A stretch of 44,325 nt of DNA from a virus. Shown one piece after another: positions 22,378-44,325 of the stretch. The number at the start of each line of letters is the position of its first letter. Position 1 is the first letter of the stretch. Under the pieces are notes generated by a model that was not told where the DNA came from, made no database searches, and saw only the letters and a program-made list of their open reading frames with translations. The stretch lies in the IMG/VR virus record IMGVR_UViG_3300045286_000174, positions 1 through 44,325 of that record; one strand, 5' to 3'. Both the position numbers and the translations under genes were made by a program.

Positions 22378-22387
22378 ATTTTTGTCT

Positions 22388-22413
22388 CGCTCCCATGCTC
22401 CGGCGTGGGAGCG
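22388..22413. repeat. Palindromic repeat (REP-like)
   Basis: CGCTCCCATGCTCC then GGCGTGGGAGCG, a member of the same palindrome family, lies in the short gap before the next tail gene. Confidence 0.8.
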
Positions 22414-24658: not shown

Positions 24659-25207
24659 TTATTTATCATTTTCAACAGGTTTACATTCATGAAGATTATT
24701 TTGAGCTTTTTTGTATGCATAACTAGCTTCAATGGCAGTTTTATAAAATCCTAAATGAATTATTTTGTTATTATGTCCAATTTGTGCTTGCCATGGTCTT
24801 GTTTTGCTTCCTTTACAAATTGATACTCCTTTATATCCAGATTTATTGTTATGATTTTTTCCTCTGTTATGATGATTTTGCCGACTTGTTACTGAACGTA
24901 AATTAATAATTCTATTGTCATCTCTGATTCTATTGATATGATCGATATAAATAGGCCATTCATTATAAATATAAAACCAAGCTAATCTGTGAGCCATATA
25001 TTTCAATCCATGAATTTTTATTAGAATATATCCATTATAATGTTTTGAACCTGCTATACTTCCATATTTTGTTTTACCTCCGGTATGCATTTTCCATATA
25101 AATTCACCGGTATTTGAATTATATGTTAATAATTCTTTTAATTGAGCTAAAGTAATAATATTTTCTCTAGGTTGGCGGATAAAACGCGGCTGGATTTCAG
25201 GTTTCAT
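24659..25207 (-). CDS. HNH endonuclease with AP2 domain (selfish gene)
   Basis: 182 residues. The HNH core is MAHRLAWFYIYNEWPIYIDHINRIRDDNRIINLRSVT, followed by NHHNR, and a C-terminal AP2-like DNA-binding domain (SGYKGVSICKGSKTRPWQAQI, then LGFYKTAIEASYAYKKAQ). This HNH-AP2 architecture is typical of phage homing endonucleases. The gene is extremely AT-rich next to GC-rich neighbours and asparagine/isoleucine/lysine-heavy. ATG at 25207 overlaps the preceding gene by four bases; a longer frame to 25264 lies inside that gene. It appears to have landed in the leftward operon between the DUF7694-like gene and xis. Confidence 0.88.
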   Translation of the reverse strand: MKPEIQPRFIRQPRENIITLAQLKELLTYNSNTGEFIWKMHTGGKTKYGSIAGSKHYNGYILIKIHGLKYMAHRLAWFYIYNEWPIYIDHINRIRDDNRIINLRSVTSRQNHHNRGKNHNNKSGYKGVSICKGSKTRPWQAQIGHNNKIIHLGFYKTAIEASYAYKKAQNNLHECKPVENDK

Positions 25208-25554
25208 TTCGGCCCCACCAGGATCGAAGGCGGCAGCGAGATTTCCACGCCGATCGGCTGCCATAAATGCAGCGTATTGGGATGGCAGTTCACATACTGG
25301 CTTTTTGGCGGATGAAACTGGATCACGAGATCTTCTTCGTCCCAGAATTCATCCTTGATGAAGCACATTTCTTTCCATGTGGGCGTTCGGTGCTCAAGAG
25401 ATATCGATACATGATTCCATCCCGCCCCATCCGAGGCGATGATGCGAATGCGATTCCCGCCATGCCAATAATAAAAAGCCCCGTTATTGCCATAACTGGA
25501 ATCCGACGCCAACGGCCCGGTACGGATTCGATATTTTTCGGGTACGTGAAACAT
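25204..25554 (-). CDS. Phage protein, DUF7694-like
   Basis: 116 residues from ATG at 25554. It contains GNNGAFYYWHGGNRIRIIASDGAGWNHVSISL, then RTPTWKEMCFIKDEFWDEEDLVIQFHPP and NTLHLWQP. The pattern G-W-x-H-V-S-V-S, P-T-W-x-E-M-C, F-W..E-D-x-V-x-Q-x-H-P and N-x-x-H-x-L-H-L-W is that of a family seen in many phage early regions, listed as DUF7694 as far as I recall. Function unknown. It begins one base after the preceding gene's stop codon. Confidence 0.65.
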   Translation of the reverse strand: MFHVPEKYRIRTGPLASDSSYGNNGAFYYWHGGNRIRIIASDGAGWNHVSISLEHRTPTWKEMCFIKDEFWDEEDLVIQFHPPKSQYVNCHPNTLHLWQPIGVEISLPPSILVGPK

Positions 25555-25555
25555 G

Positions 25556-25858
25556 TCAGTTCCCGGATTCCCGATACCGCACCCGCACTGGCCCCACTTG
25601 TTTGAAATCCGCGACGTTTTCGGATGGCCTGGCCTGCTCGATGGCTTTTTCGTCAGATTCGAGGGGAATGAAACGGGAGCCGGTTTTGTTCTTTGAAGCC
25701 TTTTGAAATTCCAGTTCGACCCGCGCCGTGTTGATGATGGTCTGCGCGACATCGGATATGGCTCTGGCCTTTTCGATGGTCATGCGTTCGTCGCCATCCT
25801 TGAGCATTTCCAGGGTTTCGAACAGATGATTGCGGAGGTCATCGACATTCGTCTTCAT
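25556..25858 (-). CDS. Small phage early protein, unknown
   Basis: 100 residues. The N-terminal half is helical (VDDLRNHLFETLEMLKDGDERMTIEKARAISDVAQTIINTARVELEF), a pattern shared with small phage proteins encoded near replication or DNA-modification genes. The C-terminal half is charged. Its start overlaps the end of the HNH gene upstream by 20 bases. Confidence 0.65.
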   Translation of the reverse strand: MKTNVDDLRNHLFETLEMLKDGDERMTIEKARAISDVAQTIINTARVELEFQKASKNKTGSRFIPLESDEKAIEQARPSENVADFKQVGPVRVRYRESGN

Positions 25859-26513
25859 GCTGCTTCTCCCGTTTCTGGCGCTTGGTGATGGTGGCTTTCA
25901 GGCAATTGTTCCGGTAGATCAGATCGACCAGAACAGCCGGCAGGTGGTGGATGGAATTCCGTTGCATGTTTTCACTGCGGGTGATGCATTCCAGGTTTTC
26001 GATCCGAATATCGGATTTGTCCCGGTTTTTGAACACCACGATATGCCCATTGGGAATCGGGCCGTGATGCGCCTCCCAAACGATCAGATGCAGCCCCTTC
26101 CAGTCGCGCGGCGGATAACCGGTGTCGCTGATCTTGCGCTGCCGATAGCCCTCCCTGACGATGCGCTCGGCACCGATCGGCTGCTTGCGCAGGGCGACGA
26201 TGCCGGAGAGGTTGCCCTTTTTGAACCGGGACAACTCGGCATTGCCGCCGGCCGTCCAACCCTTCAACCCCGAATTCCAGGGTTTCTGGCCTTTCTGGAA
26301 CCGGTGTCTTTTGCCGGCTTCGGAGGCTTTCCGGGCGCATTCCTGTCCGATTCGAAACAGGCATTCCCGGGTTTTTCTGATCCCCATTTTGCGCACTTTC
26401 TGATTGATCGATACAGTGGAAACGCCCATCCTTGCGGCGAGAACCGAGGTCTGGACATGGGGATATTCGGCTTTGAGGATTTCGGTTTCTTCGGGCGTCC
26501 AGATATGTCGCAT
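25839..26513 (-). CDS. HNH endonuclease with N-terminal SANT/Myb-like domain
   Basis: 224 residues from ATG at 26513. Residues 1-50 hold a DNA-binding helix set (WTPEETEILKAEYPHVQTSVLAARMGVSTVSINQKVRKMGI). A linker with FQKGQKPWNSGLKGW and FKKGNLSGIVALRKQPIGAERI leads to an HNH core (HLIVWEAHHGPIPNGHIVVFKNRDKSDIRIENLECI). This layout is common in phages as HNH signature proteins. GC content matches the phage, unlike the other two HNH homing genes. It begins three bases after the beta-clamp stop and overlaps the next gene by 20 bases. A housekeeping role in phage DNA processing is possible. Confidence 0.8.
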   Translation of the reverse strand: MRHIWTPEETEILKAEYPHVQTSVLAARMGVSTVSINQKVRKMGIRKTRECLFRIGQECARKASEAGKRHRFQKGQKPWNSGLKGWTAGGNAELSRFKKGNLSGIVALRKQPIGAERIVREGYRQRKISDTGYPPRDWKGLHLIVWEAHHGPIPNGHIVVFKNRDKSDIRIENLECITRSENMQRNSIHHLPAVLVDLIYRNNCLKATITKRQKREKQHEDECR

Positions 26514-26515
26514 GG

Positions 26516-27598
26516 TCAAAGTCTCATCGGCATGATCAGATAGCCCTGTTCGGCGAAATCCCTGCCGGATTCGGTCAGGACGAAGCACTGCCGGTCAGAG
26601 ATCGACAGGTTCACCCGATCGCAAGCCATGGCGGACAGGCAGGAAATGATATAACCGACGTTCATGCCGACTTCAGGACTGTCGACGACGTTTTCATAAT
26701 CGATTTGCTCGCTGGATTGAATCTCGGTCATGTCGGCTTCGATCGTGCAGACGCCGTTTTCGAATCTGAACCGGCAGCTGGATTTGTCGGTTCCCAGTTC
26801 GATGCGATACAGGCAGTTCAGCAATGCCAGGCGGTCGAACGTGATTTCGCCAAAATCATCGCGCGGGATGATTTTGTCCGGATCGGGAAAGCGGCCTTCG
26901 ATCAGTCGGGTCGAAAAGCTGAGATCGTTCAGTTTGAACACGGCGGCGGAAGCGTGCAGTTCGAGTTCGACCGGCTGGCTGTTCAGATGGCGGATCGCCT
27001 CGCGGACGGATTCGGCATGAAGGATGAATTCCTTGTCGAAATCCGGCCCGGGATGGTCGATCCGGTGCCGGGCCAGGCGATGGCCGTCGGAGGCCACGGC
27101 CAGCAGATGACCGTCGGTCAGATAAAGTGCGATGCCATGCAGGTAATAACGCACTTCGGAATTCGGGGCGGCGCAGAAAACGGTGTTTTTGAACATGGCC
27201 CGTAGGGTTTCGCCGGGCAGGATGATCGATCCCAGCAGATCGTCGACCGGAAAGGCGGGAAACGATTCCGCATTCGCCCGCGCCAGGGCAAAGCGGGATT
27301 TGCCGCTGGCGAGCTTGATCCTGGTTTCATTGATTTCCAGATTCAGTTCCGCGCCGTCCGGTAGATTCTTGATCCAGCCATGCAGCTTGCCGGCGTCGAC
27401 CGCCAGCCTGAACGGTTCGCTTTCGAAGGCGATCTGCGCCTGCAATTGCCGCTCGCAGTCGGTGCAGGTCATGACCAGATGGCCACCGTCGCTTTCGATC
27501 AGCACGCAGGCCAGGATTGGCATGGTTTTAGAATCGGCGCAGCCGATCACCCTGGACAGGCAATTGAAAAGGTCGTCACGAGCGATTTGAATGTTCAT
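26516..27598 (-). CDS. dnaN: DNA polymerase III beta sliding clamp
   Basis: 360 residues from ATG at 27598. It has the three-domain layout and length of bacterial DnaN and ends YLIMPMRL, nearly the same as the closing residues of host clamps. Other landmarks are PILACVLIESDGGHLVMTCTD, GIALYLTDGHLLAVASDGHRLARHR and DRLALLNCLYRI. A phage-coded clamp would tether the host polymerase to phage DNA. A separate phage polymerase is not present in the window. The gene overlaps the small Zn-protein gene by ATGA and sits in the leftward early operon. Confidence 0.9.
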   Translation of the reverse strand: MNIQIARDDLFNCLSRVIGCADSKTMPILACVLIESDGGHLVMTCTDCERQLQAQIAFESEPFRLAVDAGKLHGWIKNLPDGAELNLEINETRIKLASGKSRFALARANAESFPAFPVDDLLGSIILPGETLRAMFKNTVFCAAPNSEVRYYLHGIALYLTDGHLLAVASDGHRLARHRIDHPGPDFDKEFILHAESVREAIRHLNSQPVELELHASAAVFKLNDLSFSTRLIEGRFPDPDKIIPRDDFGEITFDRLALLNCLYRIELGTDKSSCRFRFENGVCTIEADMTEIQSSEQIDYENVVDSPEVGMNVGYIISCLSAMACDRVNLSISDRQCFVLTESGRDFAEQGYLIMPMRL

Positions 27599-27783
27599 GG
27601 GATCAGGAATCCGTCCGACCATTGCCGCTTGATTTTTTCGCTGCTGTCGATGAGCCGGGTCATGGTCTGATGATGGGTTTCGCAGAACCGCGCCCAGATT
27701 CTGCCGTCGCTGTCTTTATGCGCGTGCGTTCCGGGCGATTTGCAGGCTTCCCATGAACATCGGGGAAATTTTTTATCAATCAT
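27595..27783 (-). CDS. Small putative zinc-binding protein
   Basis: 62 residues, coupled by ATGA overlaps to the clamp gene after it and the methyltransferase gene before it. CSWEACKSPGTHAHKD...FCETHHQTM offers Cys/His ligands spaced for one zinc ion. No family recognised. The conserved position between methyltransferase and clamp suggests a partner role for one of them. Confidence 0.65.
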   Translation of the reverse strand: MIDKKFPRCSWEACKSPGTHAHKDSDGRIWARFCETHHQTMTRLIDSSEKIKRQWSDGFLIP

Positions 27784-28718
27784 GCGAAATCAACTGCTTC
27801 ATTGAACATGTCAATGTTTAAATTTCTGGCGGCCTGGAGATTTTTGATCGCCTGATGGTAGTAGCTTTCCTTAAGTTCGATGCCGATGAATCGGCGATCG
27901 TTTTGAATGGCTACATAACCCTCAGAGCCGATGCCGGCAAAAGGAGAAAGGACGATATCACCAGGATTGCTCCACAGATGCAGGGCGCGTTCGATGATAT
28001 CCAGAGCCAAAGGGCAGACATGGCGTTCGTCGTCATGCTCGCGGGCACCGTTGACATTGAGGGTGCGCTGGAAATTGATATCCATCCACACCGGCGATGC
28101 ATAACGGCGCCAGCGCTCATGCGACAGCGTACCGGTCATGGGTTCATCTTCGCCGATGAACCATTCAAGACCATTGGGATGGGCGATGGGTTCGGGATTT
28201 TCTCCGGGCTTGCGGAAAGCCAGCAGATATTGGGGAATGCCGGCGCGAGACATGGAAGAATCCTTGCATAACTGCTTGTGCATGAGGCCGAGCGCCTTGG
28301 TGCGGGTGGCTTCGAGCAGGGGATCTTTCCACATGCAATGTTCGGAATGAAAAATGAAGCCATGTTCGAGGAATCGACGAATCAGGTCGCCGCGAAAATC
28401 TTTCAGCCCGATATAACCGTCCCTTTCCTTCATCGCGGGAACATTCATGCAGTCCACGGCGACTATGCGGCCTGGCTTGATAACCCGATACAAATGGCGG
28501 ATGACAAAGCCAAAATGTAGATGGAATTCCTCGTCGGTTCGGCAATTGCCGATATCGCGGGGCGAATTGGAATATACATATAACCCCAGATAGGGCGGAG
28601 AGAAAACCGACAGATGGATGGAATCGTCCGGAATTCCATCCAGTATTTCCACGCAGTCGCCGTGAAACAATGTCCAGTTTTCACCGTCGGTTTGGTTGAG
28701 TAGTTTTATAGGATTCAC
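27780..28718 (-). CDS. DNA methyltransferase (amino-methyltransferase, beta-class order)
   Basis: 312 residues. Catalytic motif IV is FSPPYLGLY (Ser40-Pro-Pro-Tyr43) and the AdoMet-binding motif I is SPFAGIGSEG (258-267), preceded by LHLWSNPGDIVL and followed by RRFIGIELKESYYHQA. Motif IV before motif I is the beta-class order. SPPY is typical of N4-cytosine enzymes, while N6-adenine enzymes usually have DPPY. No cognate restriction enzyme is visible. It follows the SNF2-type helicase with a four-base overlap, so the pair is probably expressed together. It could protect phage DNA from host restriction. Confidence 0.88.
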   Translation of the reverse strand: MNPIKLLNQTDGENWTLFHGDCVEILDGIPDDSIHLSVFSPPYLGLYVYSNSPRDIGNCRTDEEFHLHFGFVIRHLYRVIKPGRIVAVDCMNVPAMKERDGYIGLKDFRGDLIRRFLEHGFIFHSEHCMWKDPLLEATRTKALGLMHKQLCKDSSMSRAGIPQYLLAFRKPGENPEPIAHPNGLEWFIGEDEPMTGTLSHERWRRYASPVWMDINFQRTLNVNGAREHDDERHVCPLALDIIERALHLWSNPGDIVLSPFAGIGSEGYVAIQNDRRFIGIELKESYYHQAIKNLQAARNLNIDMFNEAVDFA

Positions 28719-30085
28719 GTCAGGAATGAGGGTAGTTGCATGGTTTTGGATGGATTATAGAAATTGGTGTTTTTGCGGTTGCCCAATACTTCCGATCGCA
28801 CGGCATCCATGGTTTCGCCAGCCATTGCATCGGCCATGATTCGGGCGTCGGTTTCCTTGCGCTGAAGATTGGCGACGACGGCACCTTCTATATTGCTGGA
28901 GAAGATATGCACATTCACCGGATTTTTTTGGCCAAATCGCCAGCATCTGCGGACGGCCTGATAGTAGGCTTCCCATGAGTCGGTCACGCCGACGAAAGCC
29001 ATGTTGTGGCAAACCTGAAAATTCAGGCCATGGCCGCAGATCGATGGTTTGCTGATCAGCACTCGGGTTTTGCCATGGGCGAATTTCAAAAGCTCGCGTT
29101 CCTTAAAGTCGGCGTCATCCGATCCCTGGATTTGCACCGATCCTGGAATGGCGGATTGCAGGGCATCGCCTTCTGCATTCAGGTCGCACCAGATCAGAAA
29201 TATATCGGGCGAGGCATTGACGATTTCCGCGCAGGCTTTGACACGAATGGGCATGCTTTGCTTGCGGGCACCGCGCCGTTCCATCAGGGTTTGCGCCTCG
29301 ACCGGAAAAAGCCCGATGGAAAAATCATGTTCCATTTCGACGGTATGCTGATATACGTTCAGCGAAGGGAGTTCATACAGACTGGCATCATGGCCCAGAT
29401 CGGCAGGTGATCGCACCATCGCGCCCCATGATGCGACCCACCGCCAGAAAGCCGCCCGCGCATGGCCTTTCAATCGCCAGGTTTGGGTTTCCGATCCGTC
29501 ATGGACGAAATACTCGGACAGCATCTCCGGGCGCGAGCACACGCCCAGAAATTGCGCATGATTGCCCAGTTCCGTCCAGTCATTGGGCGCCGGCGTGGCC
29601 GTGCAGGCCAGCTTGTATGGCGTCAGGCGGAAACTTTCGAGCAGGGTTTGCAGGGTTTTTGAGGCGAAATTCTTGATGATGCCGGATTCGTCCAATACGA
29701 CGGATACGAATCGACTGGCGTCAAATTTATGCATTCGGTCGTAATTGGTGATGTTGATTCCCTTTTTGATCTGCCATGATTCGCGGGCATGGTTCACGGC
29801 GACACCGATCCGCGCGCCTTCCTCCACGGTCTGCTCGGCGACGGCCAGCGGTGCCAGGATCAGCACATCATGGCCGGTTTCCCGATGCACCATGTCGGCC
29901 CAAGCCAACTGCATGGCGGATTTTCCTAATCCGGTATCGGCGAAGATGGCGGCGCAGCCGCGCCGCAACGCCCATTTCACCAGATCGATCTGGTGCGGAA
30001 AAAGCCCGTAATCGCGCAACGGCGCATCGATGCCGTCGCGCTGGATCAGTCCGAGTTTGTGATCGATGAAGGTTTGATAATTCAT
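28715..30085 (-). CDS. SNF2-type DEAD/DEAH helicase-like ATPase
   Basis: 456 residues, first gene of the leftward operon. Motifs: Q motif FPHQIDLVKWALRRG (28-43), Walker A ADTGLGKS (49-56), Walker B VVLDESG (129-135), motif III CTATPAPND (161-169), and the C-terminal motif VI YYQAVRRCWRFGQKNPV (374-390), the Q-x-x-R-R-x-x-R-x-G-Q form of SNF2 proteins. Such ATPases translocate on double-stranded DNA. Roles suggested by context are phage replication/recombination or working with the coupled methyltransferase. No nuclease domain is fused. Confidence 0.88.
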   Translation of the reverse strand: MNYQTFIDHKLGLIQRDGIDAPLRDYGLFPHQIDLVKWALRRGCAAIFADTGLGKSAMQLAWADMVHRETGHDVLILAPLAVAEQTVEEGARIGVAVNHARESWQIKKGINITNYDRMHKFDASRFVSVVLDESGIIKNFASKTLQTLLESFRLTPYKLACTATPAPNDWTELGNHAQFLGVCSRPEMLSEYFVHDGSETQTWRLKGHARAAFWRWVASWGAMVRSPADLGHDASLYELPSLNVYQHTVEMEHDFSIGLFPVEAQTLMERRGARKQSMPIRVKACAEIVNASPDIFLIWCDLNAEGDALQSAIPGSVQIQGSDDADFKERELLKFAHGKTRVLISKPSICGHGLNFQVCHNMAFVGVTDSWEAYYQAVRRCWRFGQKNPVNVHIFSSNIEGAVVANLQRKETDARIMADAMAGETMDAVRSEVLGNRKNTNFYNPSKTMQLPSFLT

Positions 30086-30330: not shown

Positions 30331-30741
30331 TTATTTTTTCCGTTTTTCCATTAACCGGGCGTGTTCGATCACCTCCCTGTTTTCCTGTTTGCATTCTTCA
30401 GCCCAGCGGAACCACTCCGTCAATTGGGTGGGCGTGAGGATGTGCGCGTACTCCATTGCGCGGCGCTGGTCATCCGTTATTGCCAAATCGAAAGGTTTGG
30501 TTGTCTCGTGAATCGTTAAGGAAGTCGTGTAAATTTGACCTTGTCCAGTTGCCAGCCAATCGACATTCACTCCTAGAATTTTTGCAAAACAGGAGGTATG
30601 GGATGAACCCTTTGCATTCCGTTTTAAATCGCATAGATATTGCACGGATTGAGGTTTAATCCCACAACGACGAGCTAGTTCAGATTGACTCATATTGGCT
30701 TGGTCAAGCGCCCAAAGCAGTCTTTCCGCATAACTTTTCAT
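30331..30741 (-). CDS. Lysogeny repressor, HTH XRE type, without autoprotease domain
   Basis: 136 residues. The N-terminal helix-turn-helix is MSQSELARRCGIKPQSVQYL, ending in LGVNVDWLATGQG, the usual close of an XRE/CI-type DNA-binding domain. The C-terminal part (DDQRRAMEYAHILTPTQLTEWFRWAEECK) is helical and short. No S24 peptidase with its Ser-Lys pair is present. It is transcribed divergently from the Cro-like gene and flanked by two operator arrays, the classical switch layout. Without autocleavage, induction probably needs an antirepressor or another signal. Confidence 0.8.
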   Translation of the reverse strand: MKSYAERLLWALDQANMSQSELARRCGIKPQSVQYLCDLKRNAKGSSHTSCFAKILGVNVDWLATGQGQIYTTSLTIHETTKPFDLAITDDQRRAMEYAHILTPTQLTEWFRWAEECKQENREVIEHARLMEKRKK

Positions 30742-35729: not shown

Positions 35730-36203
35730 ATGATTATGGATATTGAAACCCAAGCCAGACAAAACGAGTTCGGCGCATTGGTCGGCATCGATCGAACGCA
35801 TGTATCGCAGTTCGTGGTCAACGGCATATTGCGTCCGAATGGAACCTACAGGGAATGGATCATGGATTTTTGTTCACATCTGCGGGCTCGTGCGGCTGGC
35901 CGGGGCGTCGATGATGAAGACCGCAAGCGCAGGGAATGCGCCGAGGCTGACATCCTGCAAATGAAAGCCCAGCGCATGGCCGGCGAACTCATCGACAGGG
36001 CCGGCCATGATCGCGCCGCCTATGCTGTCGGGCGCATCCTGCAGAAAGCCCTGATCGATACCTTGCCGTCGAAAATCTCGACCGAACTGGCCAGCCAGAC
36101 CGACTCCTGGGCGATCGAATGTTACCTGCGCGACAAAATCCGCGCGGAACTGGCGGCCATTGCCAGCCTGAAACCCGAAGAGATCGCCAATGAAGCCGCA
36201 TGA
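35730..36203 (+). CDS. Terminase small subunit (Nu1-like)
   Basis: 157 residues. The N-terminal segment is a winged helix-turn-helix (QNEFGALVGIDRTHVSQFVVNGIL), followed by AEADILQMKAQRMAGELIDRA, the Nu1-type pattern of A-x-x-x-x-L-K-x-K..x-G-E-L. The C-terminal helices end in a segment overlapping the large subunit start by 14 bases, so the pair is coupled. It would recognise packaging DNA. Start may also be ATG at 35736. Together with a GpA-type large subunit it implies a cos-type packaging system. Confidence 0.75.
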   Translation: MIMDIETQARQNEFGALVGIDRTHVSQFVVNGILRPNGTYREWIMDFCSHLRARAAGRGVDDEDRKRRECAEADILQMKAQRMAGELIDRAGHDRAAYAVGRILQKALIDTLPSKISTELASQTDSWAIECYLRDKIRAELAAIASLKPEEIANEAA

Positions 36204-38214
36204 CGGGTTCCTCGCTTACGTCCAGGCCTTCGGCGAAGGCCTTCGCCCGGACAAGCCGTTGTGGATCGATGAATGGGCCGAGGAACACATGCAGATCCCC
36301 GCCGAGACCGGCGCCGCCGAGCCGGGCCGTTATCGCGTCGAACGCACGCCTTATGCCCGCGCCGTCATGCGCGCCCTCAGTCCCGAGCATCCGGCCCGCC
36401 GCGTCGTGGTCAAGGGCGCCAGCCAGCTTCTGAAAACGCAGATCGGCCTGAACTGGCTGTTCGCCCTGATCGACAAGTCGCCGGCCAACGCCATCATGCT
36501 CCAGCCTACCGACCGGCTGGCCAAGCGCGTCTCCGCCCGTTTCGACAAGACCGTCAACGCCGTGTCGACGGTCAAGCAAAAAGTCGCCGTCAAACGTTCC
36601 CGCGACAACCGCAACACCGTGGACACCAAGGAATTCAAGGGCGGCACGCTGTGGATACTGACCGGGCGATCCGCATCCAACCTCTCCGAGGCCTCGGCGC
36701 GCTATGTCTATGCCGACGAGGTAGACCGCATCATTCGCGAGATCAAAGGCGAAGGCGATCCGATCAGCCTGCTGGAAAAGCGCCAGTCCACCTATGGCCG
36801 CAAGGCCAAATCCTATTACACCAGCTCCCCGACCGAAGAGGACGCCAGCCGCATAGACGAGCTGTTCCGCGAAGGCGATCAGCAATATTGTTTTGTGCCC
36901 TGTCCCCATTGCGGCGAATACCAGACGCTCGAATGGGAAAACCTGCGCGCCGACTTCGATCAGGGCAGGGTGTGGATGATTTGCACGTCAAATGGCTGCA
37001 TGATCGAGGAGCATCACAAACCCTTCATGTTCGACAACCACCAATGGCGAGCCGCCGCGCCCGGCGGCGAAACCGCGTCCTTCACCATCAGCTACCTGTA
37101 CGCCCCGCTCGGATGGGATTCCTGGCTCAAACTGGCCCAGGAGCACCGCGACGCCCAGGCCGAGATGGATCAGGGCAGCAAGGAAAAGATGCAGGTATTC
37201 TGGAATACCCGTTTAGCCCGCACCTGGACGCTAATTTCGGCCCGCATCAAACCGGAGGTACTCTACCAGCGGGCAGAGTACTATAGGCTCGGAATCGCCC
37301 CAAAAGGTGCCTTAATCGCCACCGCCGCCGTCGACGTACAGGGCAACCGCCTGGAAATGCTCATCAATGGCTGGGGGCCGGGCGAAATCGGCCTGGAATG
37401 CTGGGTGATTAATCACCATATACTTTATGGCGATCCCACCCTGCCGGATGTCTGGCGCGAGCTGGAAACCCATTTGCAACTGCCGATCGCCACCGCCAGC
37501 GGTGCCGAAATGATCATTTCCGCCTGCTGCATCGATTCGGGCGATGGCGACAGCGCCATCGAGGTCTATGAATTCGTCCGCACCCGCCGCCGCCGCTACA
37601 TCCGCGGCCAGTTGCAGACCGTCCTCGCGGTCAAGGGCGCATCCCATTCCGGCAAACCCGTCATCGCCGGCAAGCCCGGCAAAGTCGACTACAACTATCG
37701 CGGCAGGCCGCAGCATCATGGCGCCGAAATCTGGCTGGTTGGCACGGATACCTGCAAGGATTGGCTTTTCAATCGCCTGGCGCTCGATGGCCAGCAGGCC
37801 ATCCATCTCAGCCAGGAGCTGGACATCGAATTCTTCCGCCAACTGCTCGCCGAGGCCAAGGTCGTACGCTGGATCGGCAAGAAAAAGCGCAAAATCTATG
37901 AAAAAATCAAGATCGGCCATCCCAACGAAGCCCTGGATTTGATGGTTTACAACCTCGCCTCCGCCTGGTATCTGGGCATCGACCGCTTCTCCGCCGCGCG
38001 CTGGAACAAGATCGCCGCCGAACTGCGCCAGCCGGACCTGTTCCAGGCCATCGAAACCGCCCCGATTCTGGTCACGGAAGCCCAAACATTGCAGGCAAAA
38101 ACTGCAATTTCGTCCACGAAAGCAGCAAATTCGCCGGTTTTGGCGTCCCAAACGCCATTGCCGAAGCGCAAATACCACAAATCCGGCCTGGGCCGGGAGG
38201 ATTGGTTGCTATGA
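36190..38214 (+). CDS. Terminase large subunit (GpA family)
   Basis: 674 residues. The ATPase part has a P-loop variant GASQLLKT (76-83) and Walker B VYADEVDR (173-180), typical of the lambda GpA group. A zinc-ribbon-like CPHCGEYQTLEW...CTSNGCM segment follows at about 240-275. The nuclease begins after 385 (AAVDVQGNRLEMLI) with further acidic residues around CIDSGDGD. GpA-type terminases cut at cos sites. It overlaps the small subunit by 14 bases and the Mor-like gene by four. The last 60 residues are polar and low in structure. Confidence 0.92.
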   Translation: MKPHDGFLAYVQAFGEGLRPDKPLWIDEWAEEHMQIPAETGAAEPGRYRVERTPYARAVMRALSPEHPARRVVVKGASQLLKTQIGLNWLFALIDKSPANAIMLQPTDRLAKRVSARFDKTVNAVSTVKQKVAVKRSRDNRNTVDTKEFKGGTLWILTGRSASNLSEASARYVYADEVDRIIREIKGEGDPISLLEKRQSTYGRKAKSYYTSSPTEEDASRIDELFREGDQQYCFVPCPHCGEYQTLEWENLRADFDQGRVWMICTSNGCMIEEHHKPFMFDNHQWRAAAPGGETASFTISYLYAPLGWDSWLKLAQEHRDAQAEMDQGSKEKMQVFWNTRLARTWTLISARIKPEVLYQRAEYYRLGIAPKGALIATAAVDVQGNRLEMLINGWGPGEIGLECWVINHHILYGDPTLPDVWRELETHLQLPIATASGAEMIISACCIDSGDGDSAIEVYEFVRTRRRRYIRGQLQTVLAVKGASHSGKPVIAGKPGKVDYNYRGRPQHHGAEIWLVGTDTCKDWLFNRLALDGQQAIHLSQELDIEFFRQLLAEAKVVRWIGKKKRKIYEKIKIGHPNEALDLMVYNLASAWYLGIDRFSAARWNKIAAELRQPDLFQAIETAPILVTEAQTLQAKTAISSTKAANSPVLASQTPLPKRKYHKSGLGREDWLL

Positions 38215-38507
38215 GCCGCTACAAAGACAACATCCTGGATTTCAAATGGGATTTGGCGCAAGCCATCGGTCGCAATGCCGGATTTCTGTCGGAACGATGC
38301 GCGGAAGAACTGGCCGAAGTCGTCATCAAGGAACTCACCAACAGCGCCGGCGGCCAGGAGGTCTACATTCCGTCGCCCAGCAAGGAATGCCGCAATAACC
38401 AAATCCGGCAGGCCTTCAACGGCACCAACCGGCATGAACTCTGCCGGCGGTTCAGCATATCAACAACATCGTTTTACAGGATTATCAGGGATTCTAAATG
38501 CAAATAA
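38211..38507 (+). CDS. Mor-like transcription activator
   Basis: 98 residues from ATG at 38211 (ATGA overlap with terminase). FLSERCAEELAEVVIKELTNSAGGQEVYIPSP is followed by CRNNQIRQAFNGTNRHELCRRFSISTTSFYRIIR, the Mor/C-like motif: F-N-G-x-N, E-L-C-R-R-F-x-I-S and a Y-R-I-I-R ending. Mor proteins from Mu activate late or middle transcription. Here the gene is the last of the rightward early segment and would be well placed to switch on the head and tail operon. The mechanism is inferred. Confidence 0.75.
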   Translation: MSRYKDNILDFKWDLAQAIGRNAGFLSERCAEELAEVVIKELTNSAGGQEVYIPSPSKECRNNQIRQAFNGTNRHELCRRFSISTTSFYRIIRDSKCK

Positions 38508-38515: not shown

Positions 38516-39166
38516 TTAATGCCGACGGCCGCCGCCGATATAACGCTTGTTGCCGCCGGACGTCAGGGTATATTGGCCGCCGCGCGGGCCGGTATAGAGG
38601 TTGCCGTTTCCCGATACTGCCGAACCGCGGCCCTGGTCGGTGTCAAAACTGATGCCTCTCCCAGAATATCCCCATTCATAGCGCAGGATGCCATCGGAAT
38701 TGTCATAAGGCAGCACTGTCGCCTTTTTCGCGATCTCATCCACCGCATTGGCCGGCCGTTCGCCAAAATGCACCTTTCCATTTTCGTCAGTCCATTTGAT
38801 GATTTTCAGGCCTTCGCTCGCTGATCCCGGCGCGGCTGCTGGCGGCGAATAACGGATTGGCTCGGCGGTCGCGGGCGATCCTCCGCCGTGGCAGCCCTGG
38901 CGCTCCCATTTATCCTTGGCCTTCCCTTCCGCCACCGACTGCCATTGCATGTTGGACGGATCGTCGGCGCCGCCGCAATCCAGGGGCTTGATATGATCGA
39001 TCACATAGCCCGGACAGGCGCCATGCCGGGCGCCATTGGCGGGACACGGACTCGATTCCTTGAAATGATCCTTCGCGGCCTCGCTTCGCGGATGCCGGGC
39101 TTCGGCAACCGATGAAAACAAGCCGATCGACAAAATAATCATGGATATGACAAATTTGACGTTCAT
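38516..39166 (-). CDS. Predicted secreted HNH nuclease with DUF4124 domain
   Basis: 216 residues. A signal peptide is visible (MNVKFVISMIILSIGLFSSVAEA, cleavage near 23). The mature N-terminus has an HNH motif with paired cysteines: CPANGARHGACPGYVIDHIKPLDCGGADDPSNMQW, His58 and Asn72 as metal/catalytic candidates, and WERQGC. A DUF4124-like segment (IIKWTDENGKVHFGERPA, about 121-138) follows, and the C-terminus has GPRGGQYTLTSGGNKRY, a repeat-adaptor motif found in cell-wall or surface proteins. Export would place the nuclease in the periplasm, where it could cut incoming phage DNA or another target. It is on the opposite strand from the late genes. Confidence 0.75.
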   Translation of the reverse strand: MNVKFVISMIILSIGLFSSVAEARHPRSEAAKDHFKESSPCPANGARHGACPGYVIDHIKPLDCGGADDPSNMQWQSVAEGKAKDKWERQGCHGGGSPATAEPIRYSPPAAAPGSASEGLKIIKWTDENGKVHFGERPANAVDEIAKKATVLPYDNSDGILRYEWGYSGRGISFDTDQGRGSAVSGNGNLYTGPRGGQYTLTSGGNKRYIGGGRRH

Positions 39167-39609
39167 GTTATTTTCCTAACGGTACTGAACCAATAAACCC
39201 GCTTTATCAGACCGACTATCAGGAATATGGCCATGATGAAACTTATCAACAAGGCTATATTGATGGATAATCCCAAGCCAAACAGAATCGAGGTCAATGG
39301 CAAGCATCCAAAAATGGCCAATATATTGAGGATGATCCAGATTCCATTTTGAGGCGCCGGATTTTTCTCACCGCAGCCTGGGCACAATTTCGCATTTATG
39401 CTGACCCGATGGCCGCAAATCCGGCAGGATTTCAGGTTGTAATTCGGTATGGGCTTTGCCGCCGAGATTGAGGGTTTATTCCGATTCCGTTTTTGGTTCG
39501 GGTTTGGAACCGGTTCAAACAAAGTTCCGTTTCTCTCCTGTGCTCGAATATCGGCAAGATTGCGCCGGATTTGTTCGGTTTGTTCAGGATTGACGGATTG
39601 GGCGTTCAT
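39163..39609 (-). CDS. Zinc-ribbon membrane protein
   Basis: 148 residues with a strong AGGAG site. The cytoplasmic N-terminal part has a zinc ribbon (SCRICGHRVSINAKLCPGCGEKNPAP; Cys62, 65, 76, 79). Two transmembrane helices follow (about 88-110 and 114-136). Zinc-ribbon/double-TM proteins are often found among prophage accessory genes, with roles not generally known. Its start overlaps nothing and its stop overlaps the secreted HNH gene start by four bases (GTTCAT region), so the two are coupled. Confidence 0.7.
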   Translation of the reverse strand: MNAQSVNPEQTEQIRRNLADIRAQERNGTLFEPVPNPNQKRNRNKPSISAAKPIPNYNLKSCRICGHRVSINAKLCPGCGEKNPAPQNGIWIILNILAIFGCLPLTSILFGLGLSINIALLISFIMAIFLIVGLIKRVYWFSTVRKIT

Positions 39610-39627
39610 GGTAATCTCCTGTTTCGG

Positions 39628-40077
39628 TTAATGACGATCGAATTTATGTTCTCTTGGCGGCGGAAAATATCCGCCTCCGACCGGCCAGCGATACCAGGTT
39701 GGATAAACGATGACCGGAGCTGGCGCGGGCTGATTGCGCAACTGCAAGACCTGTTCCTCGACGGCCGCCGCGCGGCGCTGCTCGGCCTGCGCCTGGGCTT
39801 CCTGGGCCTCCACCGATCTTTCCCGCAACACCTGCTCATGCGCCGCCGCGTCGATTTCGGCGGCCCGCTGCTTGCGGGCGAATGCCCAGGCGACATCCGC
39901 CGGCGAGGGTTCGTCGTTGCGCAGCTCCACCACCTTGCAGTCGCCGCCCTCGACGGCCTGCTGCTGGTAATGCGCCTGCCCGTGCGAGATGCACTTGTAA
40001 ACCGACTCCGCGCCGGCATATACCGGCAACAGCGCCAGCCCGATCGCCAGCCCGATAGATTTGAATTTATTCTTCAT
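39628..40077 (-). CDS. Predicted exported DUF4124-domain protein
   Basis: 149 residues from ATG at 40077. A signal peptide (MKNKFKSIGLAIGLALLPVYAGA) is followed by SVYKCISHGQAHYQQQAVEGGDCKVVEL, the DUF4124 pattern (V-Y-K-C..G..x-Y..x-x-C-x-x-V). A helical, alanine/glutamate-rich stretch and a proline/tyrosine-rich tail follow. The shared DUF4124 type with the secreted HNH gene two genes away suggests a partner or immunity relation. DUF4124 proteins are usually envelope proteins of proteobacteria. Confidence 0.7.
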   Translation of the reverse strand: MKNKFKSIGLAIGLALLPVYAGAESVYKCISHGQAHYQQQAVEGGDCKVVELRNDEPSPADVAWAFARKQRAAEIDAAAHEQVLRERSVEAQEAQAQAEQRRAAAVEEQVLQLRNQPAPAPVIVYPTWYRWPVGGGYFPPPREHKFDRH

Positions 40078-40264
40078 GTTCGGATACCCATTTTTCACAT
40101 TCGGCCAGCCCGCCCTTGAACAGCGAGCGCCCATTTATGAACAAATCCGGGGCTTTCGGATGAGGGATCAATTCCCTCACCTCGAAAATCGTTTTCGACA
40201 ACATGCGCCCGTGCGTTCCGGGAACGGCTACCGGCCTGATTTCAGATTTGATTTTAGTGATCAT
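40067..40264 (-). CDS. Small protein, unknown
   Basis: 65 residues from ATG at 40264, overlapping the next gene by 11 bases. IFEVRELIPHPKAPDLFINGRSLFKGGLAECEKWVSEHE has a beta-strand and helix pattern. No family recognised. Confidence 0.5.
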   Translation of the reverse strand: MITKIKSEIRPVAVPGTHGRMLSKTIFEVRELIPHPKAPDLFINGRSLFKGGLAECEKWVSEHEE

Positions 40265-40521
40265 GGTTTTAACCTCAATTTTTTCGGATCGAACAAACCC
40301 CAGTCCTGGACGATCAAAGTCCGTTTCGGCCCCTTCTCGATCACCATCCCGAATCCCTCCGGCGGCGGCGCCTGCAGCAGATTGCGCGTATGCCACAGCT
40401 GCGTCCGCGAAATGCCGGTCTGTTCCACGATTTGATCCAATGTGATGGCGGCATCCGTGAGCAAACCGGCCACCATCAGGCAATTGGTGACCGGATTACG
40501 GGATTTCACGGACGAATCCAT
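40261..40521 (-). CDS. Small winged-helix DNA-binding protein
   Basis: 86 residues with ATGA coupling to the following gene. NCLMVAGLLTDAAITLDQIVEQTGISRTQLWHTRNLLQ has the helix-turn-helix of a replication- or repressor-type winged helix. The product could be the regulator of the reverse-strand cassette in which it lies. Confidence 0.6.
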   Translation of the reverse strand: MDSSVKSRNPVTNCLMVAGLLTDAAITLDQIVEQTGISRTQLWHTRNLLQAPPPEGFGMVIEKGPKRTLIVQDWGLFDPKKLRLKP

Positions 40522-40768
40522 CCCGATCGACCATGCATGCGTTTTTCAAACAGGATAATTTTTCCCTGTCCGCCTGCGCTTCGGCATCGGTGACGAACCA
40601 CCAGCCATATATCGGGTGATATCCGACATAGACATAATATTTACTTTCATTCTCAACATCCTGTTTATGAATGAGATAATTCACGGCTTCATCGATCTTT
40701 TGATTTCTCATGGCGAAATCATTCATCAATCGGCGTTCATTTTCTCTTGGTGTTTCGCTGGCGTTCAT
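40496..40768 (-). CDS. Small protein, unknown, cassette member
   Basis: 90 residues beginning ATGAACGCC after AGGAGAACCTGA, overlapping the next gene by 26 bases. It is charged and tyrosine-rich (KYYVYVGYHPIYGWWFVTDAEAQAD). No family recognised. Confidence 0.55.
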   Translation of the reverse strand: MNASETPRENERRLMNDFAMRNQKIDEAVNYLIHKQDVENESKYYVYVGYHPIYGWWFVTDAEAQADREKLSCLKNACMVDRDGFVREIP

Positions 40769-40796
40769 TCAGGTTCTCCTGCGCTTTACTGGATTA

Positions 40797-41231
40797 TCAA
40801 TTACAGGTTAGATCATTCTGTCTGACCAGTTTTGCATTCCGATACGGGAATCCATCTATCCCGGCATGTAACGGCATGCATTGCAAACATTTGTCAGTTC
40901 CCGGTTCGGCGATAAATCCGATTATCCGCCCGGTGCTCAGCGATACGGTCATGACGCGGGCGTGTCCGTAAACCGGGCCAATCCATTGGCCGCCCGAGTT
41001 GATGCTGTTTTCGTCTTGGCCGCCGCGATGCAGTTCCACGGAGATCAAATCGCCGTCCCAGAATGCGTCTTCGGGAATTTGAAATTGTCTTTGCTCGATG
41101 GTGCAGGTTCCTCCCCATACATACCGGGCGAAATTCTCGGCGTCCGCCAGTGATAGATAACCGGTCTCTAAACCGCTTTGCACCAGGACGAAGATCGTTG
41201 CTGTTCTTGAATTGCTGGATTTGGCGTTCAT
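40797..41231 (-). CDS. Small protein, unknown, cassette first gene
   Basis: 144 residues from ATG at 41231 with GGAGAATCCAG upstream. A cysteine-containing beta-rich protein (FARYVWGGTCTIEQRQF, GPVYGHARVMTVSLSTGRIIGFIAEPGTDKCLQCM). No motif known. It is the first gene of the reverse-strand cassette, preceded by a promoter and an inverted repeat. Confidence 0.6.
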   Translation of the reverse strand: MNAKSSNSRTATIFVLVQSGLETGYLSLADAENFARYVWGGTCTIEQRQFQIPEDAFWDGDLISVELHRGGQDENSINSGGQWIGPVYGHARVMTVSLSTGRIIGFIAEPGTDKCLQCMPLHAGIDGFPYRNAKLVRQNDLTCN

Positions 41232-41271: not shown

Positions 41272-41300
41272 ATTGTTTCACATAATAGAACGTTTGTCAA
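41272..41300 (-). promoter_or_regulatory. Promoter for reverse-strand cassette
   Basis: On the minus strand TTGACA (41300-41295) is followed after 17 bases by AACAAT (41277-41272). The -35 is perfect and the -10 is weak, so activation by a regulator is possible. Confidence 0.55.
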
Positions 41301-41302: not shown

Positions 41303-41324
41303 GTTTTGTTCGGTTCAACAAAAC
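41303..41324. promoter_or_regulatory. Inverted repeat upstream of cassette promoter
   Basis: GTTTTGTT (41303-41310) and AACAAAAC (41317-41324) are perfect inverses, directly upstream of the cassette -35 box. It could be an operator for the winged-helix protein encoded at 40261-40521. On the plus strand it is followed by T8 but has almost no GC pairs, so it would be a weak terminator. Confidence 0.45.
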
Positions 41325-41334
41325 TTTTTTTCAT

Positions 41335-41364
41335 CTGGTTCCCACGCTCCAGCGTGGGAACCAG
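41335..41364. repeat. Palindromic repeat (REP-like)
   Basis: CTGGTTCCCACGCTCC then AGCGTGGGAACCAG is the longest member of the palindrome family, outside the late tail region. Confidence 0.85.
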
Positions 41365-41381
41365 GAACCTTGCAAATATTT

Positions 41382-41410
41382 ATTCCCATTTCTCCCCTAA
41401 AAATGGGAAT
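41382..41410. repeat. ATTCCCATTT dyad, copy 1
   Basis: ATTCCCATTT (41382-41391) and AAATGGGAAT (41401-41410), inverse arms 9 bases apart, repeated at 42067-42095. Both copies end in GGCTTT/CGCTTT. The stretch from 41232 to 41586 holds only this, the REP palindrome and the cassette promoter; no gene is seen. Confidence 0.6.
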
Positions 41411-41586
41411 GGCTTTCTGCTAGGCTTCGGTTTCCTATGAAATCCCACAAACCGCACATCCAGGCCCCATGCCTCGTGGCGCGAACGCTGGAACTCTTCG
41501 GCCTTCGGCCCGTTCCGTGCGCCCATGCCTCGGCCTTTCTGCGGTTTTGGTTCGGCCCTCAATCCTACATTACCGGAGCTAATCTC

Positions 41587-41910
41587 ATGGCCAGAATCAC
41601 CAACGAGCAAAGAATCAAATTATCCGTGGCGCCGAAGACCGCCGCCGGCCGCGACGCCAAAATCGACGGCGCGGTGACCTTCGAATCCTCCGATTCGATC
41701 CTCGTCTCCATCCAGCCGATCGACGATCTCAGCGCCTATGCCGTCGCCAACATGGCTACCGAAGGCGGCGCCGTGCAGATCACCGCCACCTTCGACGCCG
41801 ATCTCGGCCAGGGCGTGCGCACCGTCAGCGCCTCCGGCGCCCTGGAAGTGGTGCGCGCCGAGGCCGAAACCGCCGAGATCGTGTTCGGCGACCCCGAGCT
41901 TGCTCCCTGA
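41587..41910 (+). CDS. Ig-like / Big-domain small protein
   Basis: 107 residues, with GGAGCTAATCTC before the ATG. KLSVAPKTAAGRDAKIDGAVTFESSDSILVSI and GGAVQITATFDADLGQGVRTVSASGALEVV have the beta-strand pattern of bacterial Ig-like (Big/BIG2) domains, often used as phage decoration or attachment domains. It is the first forward gene after the reverse-strand cassette and lies before a strong terminator, so it may be made separately from the portal and capsid genes, perhaps as a virion surface decoration. An in-frame extension to 41437 does not look coding. Confidence 0.65.
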   Translation: MARITNEQRIKLSVAPKTAAGRDAKIDGAVTFESSDSILVSIQPIDDLSAYAVANMATEGGAVQITATFDADLGQGVRTVSASGALEVVRAEAETAEIVFGDPELAP

Positions 41911-41996: not shown

Positions 41997-42031
41997 GTCC
42001 CGGAGGTCGGCCAAGCTTCCGGGACTTTTTT
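41997..42031 (+). terminator. Intrinsic terminator after the Ig-like gene
   Basis: GTCCCGGA (41997-42004) pairs with TCCGGGAC (42018-42025), followed by T6. A strong factor-independent terminator. Confidence 0.9.
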
Positions 42032-42066
42032 AAAAATTACCTGACGGCGATTTTCGGGAGAAATTT

Positions 42067-42095
42067 ATTCCCATTTCTTCCCTGGAAATGGGAAT
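42067..42095. repeat. ATTCCCATTT dyad, copy 2
   Basis: ATTCCCATTTC (42067-42077) and GAAATGGGAAT (42085-42095), just after the terminator and before the gpW-like gene. Second copy of the dyad at 41382-41410. Confidence 0.6.
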
Positions 42096-42120
42096 CGCTT
42101 TTCCCCATGCTTTCGACCCC

Positions 42121-42354
42121 ATGTCTTCCGCCGCCGATCGTCTTGCCCTCTACCTCGCCGCCGAAGCCGCCATTCTGAGTGGTGGCCAGTCCGCACGGGT
42201 CGAGCATCCCAACGGCGGAAGACAACTCACATTTGCCGACCTGGCCGAAGTGCGCGCCGAAATCGCCCTCCTGCAGCGCGCCGTCGACGCCGAGCAGCGC
42301 GAGGCGATGGGAATGCCAAGTTTCCGCTTCTCCCGCGCGGTGTTCCATGACTGA
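42121..42354 (+). CDS. gpW-like head-tail joining protein (DUF6148-like)
   Basis: 77 residues from ATG at 42121. ALYLAAEAAILSGGQSARVEHPNGGRQLTFADLAEVRAEIALLQRAVDAE fits the small helical gpW/DUF6148 pattern. It is directly upstream of, and overlaps by eight bases, the portal gene, exactly as lambda gpW precedes gpB. The protein joins the finished head to the tail. ATG at 42088 would add eleven residues and cannot be excluded; neither has a clear ribosome-binding site. Confidence 0.75.
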   Translation: MSSAADRLALYLAAEAAILSGGQSARVEHPNGGRQLTFADLAEVRAEIALLQRAVDAEQREAMGMPSFRFSRAVFHD

Positions 42355-43882
42355 ACTCAACTGGCTGGAAGACGCGATCAAGGCGGTTTCGCCCGGATGG
42401 GCGATGCGCCGCGCCCGCGACCGCCAGATCCTCGCCTATTACGAAGCCGCCAAGCCTTCGGTTACCCGCAAGGGCCGCCGCGAAGCCGGTTCCGGCGATG
42501 TCGCCGTGCTGCGTGCCGGAGTCGCCCTGCGCGAACAGGCCCGCCATCTGGAACAGAATCACGATCTCGCCCGCGGCGCCTTGGCCATTTTGGTGTCCAA
42601 CATCGTCGGCGCCCGAGGCATCACCCTCGAACCGCAGCCGCGCAACAAGGACGGCAGCATCAACATCGATTTGGCCGGACAGATATCCGAGCTGTGGCAG
42701 GACTGGGGCAAGCTGCCGGAAACCACCGGCTCGCACCGCTGGGCTTCGGCGCAGCGCATCGCCGCCCGCGCATGGGTGCGCGACGGCGAATTCCTTAGCC
42801 AGCTCCTGCTGGGCAGAACGCCGGGACTGGATCACGGCACCCGCGTGCCGTTCAGCCTGGAACTGATCGAATCCGACCTGCTGCCGTTCTGGATGTCGTC
42901 GTCCGAGCCGTGGATTTCCATGGGCGTCGAGCGCAACGCCTGGGGCAGGCCGCAGGCTTATCATCTGTACAAAGTCCATCCCGGCGACTGGCAGATCGTG
43001 CAGAACGTCAATTTCTATCCCGGCGCCGCGTCCCTGCGCCGCATTCCCGCCGACCGCATGATTCACGGCAAGATCGTCGACCGGTTCCGCCAGGCGCGCG
43101 GCGTCTCGGTGTTCGCCTCGGTGCTCTCGCGCCTGGACGACATCAAGGACTACGAAGAATCCGAGCGCATCGCCGCCAAGGTCGCCGCCAGCATGGCCGC
43201 CTACATCAAAAAAGGGATGCCGGATTCCTACGAAGCCGAACGCGACAGCAACGGCAACCCGATCGCCCGCGAACTCAAGTTCGTGCCGGGCATGATCATC
43301 GACGACCTCGCTCCGGGCGAGGATATCGGCACCATCGACACCAACCGGCCCAACGCCAATCTGCAGGCGCACCGCAACAGTCAGCTTCGCGCCGTCGCCT
43401 CCGGCGTCGGCTGCGGCTATTCCTCGCTGTCGAACTCCTACGAGGGCAGCTATTCCAGCCAGCGCCAGGAGCTGGTCGAGAACTGGGGCATGTATGCCCT
43501 GATTCAGGAGGAATTCGCCGCCCAATTCGTGCAGCCGGTGTACGAAAACTTCCTGAATGTCGCCCTGGCCTCCGGGCAACTGCGGATTCCGCGCTCGCTC
43601 AATCTCAACCGCCTCGACGACGCCCTGTATATCGGCCCGCAGATGCCCTGGATCGACCCGGCCAAGGAAGCCAACGCCTGGGAAACCCTGGAGCGCAACG
43701 GCCTGGCCAGCGGCCCGGAGATCATCCGCCGTCGCGGTTTCCGCCCGAACGACGTGATCGAGCAGGAGCGCCTGTGGCGGCAGCAATGGACGGACGCCGG
43801 ACTGATCAACGCCGCCGATCCCGCCAACGAAAAACCGCCCTCGAATGTACGGAATCCCCAATATGCCCAGCCCGCCGAATGA
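42347..43882 (+). CDS. Phage portal protein (lambda type)
   Basis: 511 residues. The family pattern is that of lambda portal (GpB) proteins: WAMRRARDRQILAYYEAAKPS, NHDLARGALAILVSNIVGARGI, RTPGLDHGTRVPFSLELIESDLLP, VHPGDWQIVQNVNFYPG, and a C-terminal region rich in GPQMPWIDPAKEANAWETL. It forms the ring through which DNA is packaged. The start overlaps the gpW-like gene by eight bases, and the protease/capsid fusion starts inside its end at 43845. The last 110 residues are repeated, residue for residue, at the start of the window. Confidence 0.92.
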   Translation: MTELNWLEDAIKAVSPGWAMRRARDRQILAYYEAAKPSVTRKGRREAGSGDVAVLRAGVALREQARHLEQNHDLARGALAILVSNIVGARGITLEPQPRNKDGSINIDLAGQISELWQDWGKLPETTGSHRWASAQRIAARAWVRDGEFLSQLLLGRTPGLDHGTRVPFSLELIESDLLPFWMSSSEPWISMGVERNAWGRPQAYHLYKVHPGDWQIVQNVNFYPGAASLRRIPADRMIHGKIVDRFRQARGVSVFASVLSRLDDIKDYEESERIAAKVAASMAAYIKKGMPDSYEAERDSNGNPIARELKFVPGMIIDDLAPGEDIGTIDTNRPNANLQAHRNSQLRAVASGVGCGYSSLSNSYEGSYSSQRQELVENWGMYALIQEEFAAQFVQPVYENFLNVALASGQLRIPRSLNLNRLDDALYIGPQMPWIDPAKEANAWETLERNGLASGPEIIRRRGFRPNDVIEQERLWRQQWTDAGLINAADPANEKPPSNVRNPQYAQPAE

Positions 43883-44325
43883 TCTAAAAAACGCCGCCGC
43901 AAGCTTGCGGCAACTGAAAAAGGATTTGCTTTCGCCGGTCAAGGCCGCTCGCGGCGACTGGTGGGAAATCCGCGCCTCGGCCACGCCCGACGAAGCCGAA
44001 GTGCTGATCTATGGCGACATCGGCGAATCCTGGTTTGGCGATTCGGTCACCGCCAAGCAACTGGTCGAAGCCATCGCCGAACTCGGCAGACAGACGAAAA
44101 TCAGGGCCAGGATCAACAGCTACGGCGGCTCGGTAGCCGACGGCATCGCCATCTACAACGCCCTCAATCGGCATCCGGGCGGAACGGAAATCCATATTGA
44201 CGGCGTGGCCGTCTCCATCGCCTCGCTGATCGCCATGGCCGGCCAGAAAACCACCATGGCCGAGAACGCCCTGATGATGATCCATGCGCCCTGGGGCGCG
44301 GCCATGGGCAACAGCCAGGACATGC
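43549..44325. repeat. 777-bp diverged direct repeat of the window start
   Basis: Bases 43549-44325 align to 1-777 without indels, with about 30 substitutions. In the portal part all seven substitutions are silent; in the protease part about nine change the residue. The final roughly 130 bases are identical. Confidence 0.95.
43845..44325 (+). CDS. ClpP-like prohead protease / capsid fusion, partial second copy
   Basis: The first 160 residues of a second allele of the gene at 297-2456, cut by the window edge. Compared with the first copy it differs at about nine residues (for example DTAAS/NAAAS, SWYGD/SWFGD, GKVTK/GRQTK, SVSDG/SVADG). The nucleophilic Ser124 and His147 motifs are unchanged. 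Substitutions are conservative and consistent with a functional protein from a close relative rather than with sequencing error. Confidence 0.9.
   Translation, partial: MYGIPNMPSPPNDLKNAAASLRQLKKDLLSPVKAARGDWWEIRASATPDEAEVLIYGDIGESWFGDSVTAKQLVEAIAELGRQTKIRARINSYGGSVADGIAIYNALNRHPGGTEIHIDGVAVSIASLIAMAGQKTTMAENALMMIHAPWGAAMGNSQDM

What the first reader, a model, noticed from the sequence alone, without database searches (positions are those of the whole stretch)
38516..41231. Reverse-strand seven-gene cassette between terminase and head genes
In lambda-like phages the terminase, gpW and portal genes are contiguous. Here a 2.7-kb block on the opposite strand separates them. It has its own promoter and operator-like inverted repeat, a winged-helix protein, two exported DUF4124-type proteins (one fused to an HNH nuclease), a zinc-ribbon membrane protein and three unknown small proteins. 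This looks like a lysogenic conversion (moron) cassette expressed from the prophage and possibly directed at other phages or at the envelope.
Basis: partly seen in the sequence, partly recalled or inferred. Interest (0 to 1): 0.75.

Follow-up and report, generated by a model that had tools for sequence, protein, structure and literature searches.

The report
Reverse-strand prophage cargo operon
A temperate virus of bacteria carries a seven-gene passenger operon, pointing backwards between its DNA-packaging and head genes, that probably works while the virus lies dormant and includes an exported DNA-cutting enzyme likely to affect the cell envelope or rival viruses.

Summary
Seven tightly packed genes lie on the minus strand (38516-41231) between the terminase and gpW/portal genes; they cover 97% of the block (shuffles: mean 42%, maximum 78%). 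In 85 of 98 distinct relatives lacking Mor, terminase, gpW and portal are contiguous. In Mor-bearing relatives the slot between Mor and gpW is empty in seven and filled in others, twice by large blocks with unrelated reverse-strand genes. Exported DUF4124-type proteins occur reversed at this junction in three lineages, so it is a cargo hotspot. The HNH protein belongs to an exported family: hydrophobic N-terminus in all 22 complete members, Asp-His-Asn invariant, confident HNH fold. In four other phages it follows a regulator or repressor gene, a place usually expressed in lysogens. This supports a lysogeny-expressed moron. Superinfection exclusion by a periplasmic nuclease is a reasonable but untested function. 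The other cassette genes searched (g1, g5, g6) found no relatives and g2-g4 match no family. New variant of a known kind.

The parts
36190..38214 (+). terminase large subunit, GpA type (left flank)
   Evidence: Pfam GpA_ATPase 5e-67 and GpA_nuclease 1e-77
38214..38507 (+). Mor/C-type late transcription activator overlapping the end of terminase; left border of the slot
   Evidence: Pfam Mor 9e-14, above cut-off; phrog_532 late transcriptional activator 3e-14
38516..39166 (-). g7: signal peptide + HNH (Asp57, His58, Asn72) + DUF4124 + C-terminal GPRGG motif
39163..39609 (-). g6: zinc ribbon followed by hydrophobic membrane segments; 4-bp overlap with g7
   Evidence: Zn_ribbon_3 0.0013 (below cut-off) and phrog_14275 1.3e-5; hydrophobic C-terminal half read from the sequence
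39628..40077 (-). g5: exported protein, degenerate DUF4124, Ala/Gln/Arg-rich middle, Pro/Tyr-rich tail
   Evidence: DUF4124 E=0.028; compared with L037 and L038 slot proteins
40067..40264 (-). g4: 65-aa protein, no family match
40261..40521 (-). g3: 86-aa probable helix-turn-helix protein
   Evidence: several sub-threshold HTH models
40496..40768 (-). g2: 90-aa protein, no family match
40797..41231 (-). g1: 144-aa protein, first gene of the operon, no relatives found
   Evidence: single-sequence fold uninformative
41272..41300 (-). sigma-70-like promoter TTGACA-17-AACAAT with extended TG
41303..41324 (.). inverted repeat just upstream of the promoter
41335..41364 (.). 30-bp REP-like palindrome, further copies at 19.0-22.4 kb
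41437..41910 (+). forward ORF inside the slot; likely start at 41587 (about 107 aa)
   Evidence: no Pfam match
41997..42031 (+). strong intrinsic terminator separating the slot from the head genes
   Evidence: 11-bp stem followed by T6
42121..42354 (+). gpW-like head-tail adaptor (ORF listed from 42088); right border of the slot
   Evidence: phrog_118 1.4e-15
42179..43882 (+). portal protein ORF (true start probably downstream of 42179)
   Evidence: tblastn and HMM hits to portals of relatives

Best explanation
It is an accessory (moron) operon carried by a temperate phage in a recurrent cargo slot at the terminase(-Mor)/gpW junction. Shown: position, opposite orientation, operon-like packing, contiguity of the flanking genes in most relatives, and other reverse-strand cargo at the same site. 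Inferred: it is transcribed from its own promoter while the late genes (probably under Mor) are silent, and it alters the host envelope or periplasm. The most likely single effect is that the exported HNH nuclease, perhaps with the co-translated membrane protein g6, cuts DNA of superinfecting phages as it crosses the periplasm. I put lysogenic cargo at about 0.75 and the periplasmic exclusion mechanism at about 0.35.
For: Operon statistics. 85 of 98 distinct Mor-less relatives with a detected portal have a terminase-portal gap of at most 300 bp; the same order is annotated in Pseudomonas phages Lodos and Turba. Mor-bearing relatives: empty slot (177-334 bp from Mor to portal) in L039, L045, L080, L159, L160, L163 and L202; filled in the window (3671), L046 (5396) and L038 (about 5.3 kb). 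Reverse-strand exported DUF4124 proteins at this junction in the window, L038 (two) and L037, and a reverse zinc-ribbon/membrane gene in L157. Exported HNH family: D57, H58 and N72 invariant, core pLDDT 92-97, best Foldseek matches are Cas8-HNH domains with probability up to 0.99. Family members lie on the same strand just downstream of regulators or repressors in L002, L008, L016 and L023; in L023 an S24-type CI repressor is followed by a membrane protein and then HNH. The phage has an integrase and a CI-like repressor.
Against: No expression data. g1, g5 and g6 have no relatives in the searches made, so the cassette as a set is known only from this record. Some exported HNH genes lie in late regions, next to terminase (L017, L025) or endolysin (L014). 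No clear reverse-strand terminator after g7. No PADLOC match.
Confidence: 0.6

Rival explanations
1. The HNH gene is a packaging-associated nuclease of the terminase (as in HK97-type phages) and the block belongs to the lytic programme.
For: HNH lies about 300 bp from terminase; some family members lie directly upstream of terminase genes on the same strand (L017, L025).
Against: Opposite strand and behind a signal peptide; terminase here is GpA type; no HNH relative was found in the collected loci of relatives with the same terminase.
Confidence: 0.08
2. The exported nuclease and its partners act in lytic growth or at lysis, for example by digesting released host or competing DNA, or serve nutrient scavenging from extracellular DNA by the lysogen.
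For: A relative sits in a lysis cassette directly after an endolysin gene (L014); secreted bacterial nucleases commonly scavenge DNA (general knowledge).
Against: In this phage the block opposes the late operons and has its own promoter-like site; relatives next to repressor genes argue for lysogenic expression.
Confidence: 0.2
3. A chance capture of host DNA without selected function for phage or lysogen.
For: Lower G+C (54% against 57%), a flanking REP-like palindrome of a type found in a few genomes of the class, orphan genes.
Against: All seven frames intact and translationally packed; recurrent similar cargo at the site in other lineages.
Confidence: 0.12
4. Assembly artefact joining a foreign segment.
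For: Contig ends are near-duplicates with 4% divergence, so a strain mixture is likely; a palindrome lies at one edge.
Against: Mor and g7 stop codons are 8 bp apart and both flanks are complete; other records carry reverse cargo at the same place.
Confidence: 0.04

Closest known systems
Lysogenic conversion (moron) cassettes and prophage antiviral hotspots, e.g. [quoted passage not shown]
   Same: variable accessory genes at a fixed place between conserved phage genes
   Different: another phage group and another junction; cargo is exported and membrane proteins with no PADLOC match
HNH (beta-beta-alpha metal) nucleases; HNH domain of Cas8-HNH (8ydb, 8zdy) as closest fold
   Same: Asp-His ... 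Asn arrangement and fold
   Different: third His position not present; N-terminal signal; fused to DUF4124 here
T4 Imm / endonuclease I exclusion of superinfecting DNA (from memory, a lead only)
   Same: membrane protein plus periplasmic nuclease acting on incoming DNA is the proposed logic
   Different: no sequence relation was shown; here the nuclease would be phage-encoded
Mor/C late activators of Mu-like phages
   Same: the gene bordering the slot is over the Pfam cut-off
   Different: placed after a GpA terminase in a phage that has an integrase; target promoter unknown

Membership tests
moron / lysogenic conversion cassette | extra genes between genes that are contiguous in relatives | tested here: met
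   85 of 98 Mor-less relatives contiguous; seven Mor-bearing relatives with empty slot
moron / lysogenic conversion cassette | own promoter | tested here: inconclusive
   consensus match 10 of 12, not functional proof
moron / lysogenic conversion cassette | own terminator | tested here: inconclusive
   strong terminator before gpW on the plus strand; none clear after g7
moron / lysogenic conversion cassette | expressed in the lysogen | not testable with these tools
   needs RNA data; only indirect support from relatives next to repressor genes
HNH nuclease | catalytic Asp-His and Asn conserved | tested here: met
   D57, H58, N72 invariant
HNH nuclease | beta-beta-alpha fold | tested here: met
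   strands 54-58 and 73-77, helix 78-91, core pLDDT 92-97; Foldseek probability up to 0.99 but E about 0.1
HNH nuclease | Pfam HNH over curated cut-off | tested here: not met
   16.0 against 21.4 bits
DUF4124 | g7: Pfam over curated cut-off | tested here: met
   26.2 against 22 bits
DUF4124 | g5: Pfam over curated cut-off | tested here: not met
   15.1 against 22 bits
Mor activator | Pfam over curated cut-off | tested here: met
   51.8 against 24.9 bits
packaging-associated HNH | cytoplasmic, same strand as terminase | tested here: not met
   signal peptide and opposite strand
known anti-phage defence systems | match to PADLOC models | tested here: not met
   no match for g1, g2, g3, g5, g6, g7

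The most novel reading that the evidence does not exclude
The exported HNH proteins are an unrecognised family of prophage-encoded periplasmic nucleases, often made together with a small membrane protein and the repressor, that destroy DNA of superinfecting phages during entry; the terminase/gpW junction is one of their cargo slots.
Probability: 0.25. Interest if true: 0.75.

Novelty: new variant of a known kind. Interest (0 to 1): 0.48.

Why it matters
If right, it gives a defined place in a large group of temperate phages where accessory genes can be harvested, and a testable family of exported nucleases that would cut invading DNA before it reaches the cytoplasm, a step at which few defences are known to act by cutting DNA.

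Tried and rejected
Viral-contig searches for relatives of g1, g5 and g6 gave none; a plasmid search for g1 and a phage search for g6 gave none. g7 has one weak relative in annotated phage records. The single-sequence fold of g1 was uninformative (pLDDT 40). The inverted repeat has no second copy in the window. A protein search of L038 with g5 found nothing, but the Pfam DUF4124 model did, so the g5 relation is by domain and architecture only. The SNF2 helicase of the L046 reverse block was compared with the window's own early-region helicase: only weak motif-level similarity, so the L046 block does not look like the moved early region. DUF4124-like hits in tail regions of other relatives after profile iteration were ignored as possible low-complexity matches. 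Cellular genomes: 3 of 143 sampled held a relative of the exported HNH, on short stretches without clear context. The host was not identified. Paper searches found no description of exported prophage HNH nucleases or of DUF4124 proteins as phage cargo.

Full report
What the window is. It is a single virus record of 44,325 bases. Its first 777 bases and last 777 bases are 96.1% identical without gaps, so the two ends overlap and the head module runs from the right end (portal) into the left end (protease/capsid ORF 297-2456). It has a phage integrase (23374-24444) and a CI-like repressor (30331-30741), so it is probably temperate.

The observation. Seven minus-strand ORFs fill 38516-41231. Neighbours overlap or lie within 28 bp of each other, the strand is 97% coding, and shuffled sequence never exceeded 78%. 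The best sigma-70-like promoter of the region lies about 40 bp upstream of the first start codon. An inverted repeat lies just upstream of it; it is a single copy, so its role is open. The HNH plus DUF4124 fusion is clear. The second DUF4124 and the helix-turn-helix assignments are below curated cut-offs.

What was missed. Between terminase and the block lies a Mor/C-type late activator, overlapping the end of terminase. Its stop codon is 8 bp from that of the last cassette gene. Between the block and gpW lies one forward ORF and then an 11-bp stem with a T6 tail, a strong terminator. Cargo and head genes are therefore likely to be transcriptionally separate.

Is the site special? Relatives were collected with the terminase. 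Of 127 distinct records, 98 lacked a detectable Mor gene and had a portal; in 85 of these the gap was at most 300 bp, holding little more than gpW. Annotated Pseudomonas phages Lodos and Turba show the contiguous order. In Mor-bearing records Mor mostly follows terminase directly. In seven of them only gpW fits between Mor and portal. In the window 3.7 kb fits, in L046 5.4 kb, in L038 about 5.3 kb, in L049 a single forward exonuclease gene. The L046 block is on the reverse strand and encodes ParB-like, PAPS-reductase-like, acetyltransferase-like and SNF2 helicase proteins. L038 has exported DUF4124 proteins on the reverse strand at both edges of its slot, with forward genes between them. L037, without a detected Mor, has a reverse exported DUF4124-type protein between terminase and gpW. 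L157 has a reverse zinc-ribbon/membrane gene, and L108, L119 and L074 share a reverse gene of about 145 aa. DUF4124 was found in only 6 of 48 whole records searched, and four of these records (three lineages) have it in this gap. I conclude that the junction is a cargo slot, and that exported DUF4124 proteins are recurrent cargo. The counts are of records, not of independent events.

The HNH protein. It has 27 relatives in viral contigs that match through the exported HNH domain. All 22 complete members in the alignment have a hydrophobic N-terminus. Asp57, His58 and Asn72 are invariant. Cysteines 41 and 51 are lost together in two members, which fits a disulfide (my inference). The model has a confident HNH core (pLDDT 92-97) and its best structural matches are HNH domains of Cas8-HNH proteins, although Foldseek E-values are only about 0.1. 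The third His of the classical motif is absent. Activity is therefore likely but unproven.

Where relatives sit. In L002, L008, L016 and L023 the exported HNH gene follows a phage transcription regulator on the same strand, with at most one gene between; in L023 the order is S24-type CI repressor, two-segment membrane protein, HNH, with overlapping frames. In L008 a membrane/zinc-ribbon protein overlaps the HNH start by 4 bp, as g6 overlaps g7 in the window; the two partner proteins have their parts in opposite order, so this is similarity of arrangement, not shown homology. In L005 the gene lies reversed inside tail genes. In L014, L017 and L025 it lies in late regions. The cases next to repressor genes argue that at least part of this family is expressed in lysogens.

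Mechanism. Shown: position, orientation, operon packing, export-type N-termini, catalytic residues. Inferred: expression from the prophage; g3 as local regulator; export of g5 and g7; pairing of g6 with g7; cutting of incoming phage DNA in the periplasm. The last step is the least certain (about 0.35). Lytic-phase or scavenging roles remain possible.

Novelty. Morons and antiviral hotspots are known (for P2/P4: PMC9122126). The slot in this phage group and the exported HNH family appear undescribed in the papers that I could search. I file it as a new variant of a known kind.

Noticed in passing
window 1-777 and 43549-44325: The two ends are 96.1% identical over 777 bp without gaps: the record overlaps itself with two slightly different versions, probably a circularly permuted genome assembled from a strain mixture.
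   Followed up: partly
window 18992-19029, 19484-19525, 20247-20321, 22374-22411, 41323-41364: Several copies of a REP-like palindrome (GGTTCCCACGCT-CC-AGCGTGGGAACC); with one mismatch allowed it occurs in 3 of 369 sampled genomes of the class.
   Followed up: partly
window 41378-41427 and 42063-42112: A 50-nt repeat (82%) with an 11-bp hairpin lies before the forward slot ORF and again before gpW; possible regulatory element.
   Followed up: no
window 297-2456: ClpP-like protease and major capsid protein domains in one 719-aa ORF.
   Followed up: no
window 24659-30085: The phage encodes its own DNA polymerase III beta clamp, next to two HNH_3 genes, a DNA methylase and a SNF2-type helicase.
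   Followed up: no
L046:5412-10265: Reverse-strand block in the same slot: ParB-N, PAPS-reductase/DUF3440, acetyltransferase-like, SNF2 helicase similar to ZorD/DpdE models, and an unknown 408-aa protein; possible defence cargo.
   Followed up: partly
L039:1370-5521: Terminase fragments and a second Mor gene after the first, suggesting duplication around the slot.
   Followed up: no
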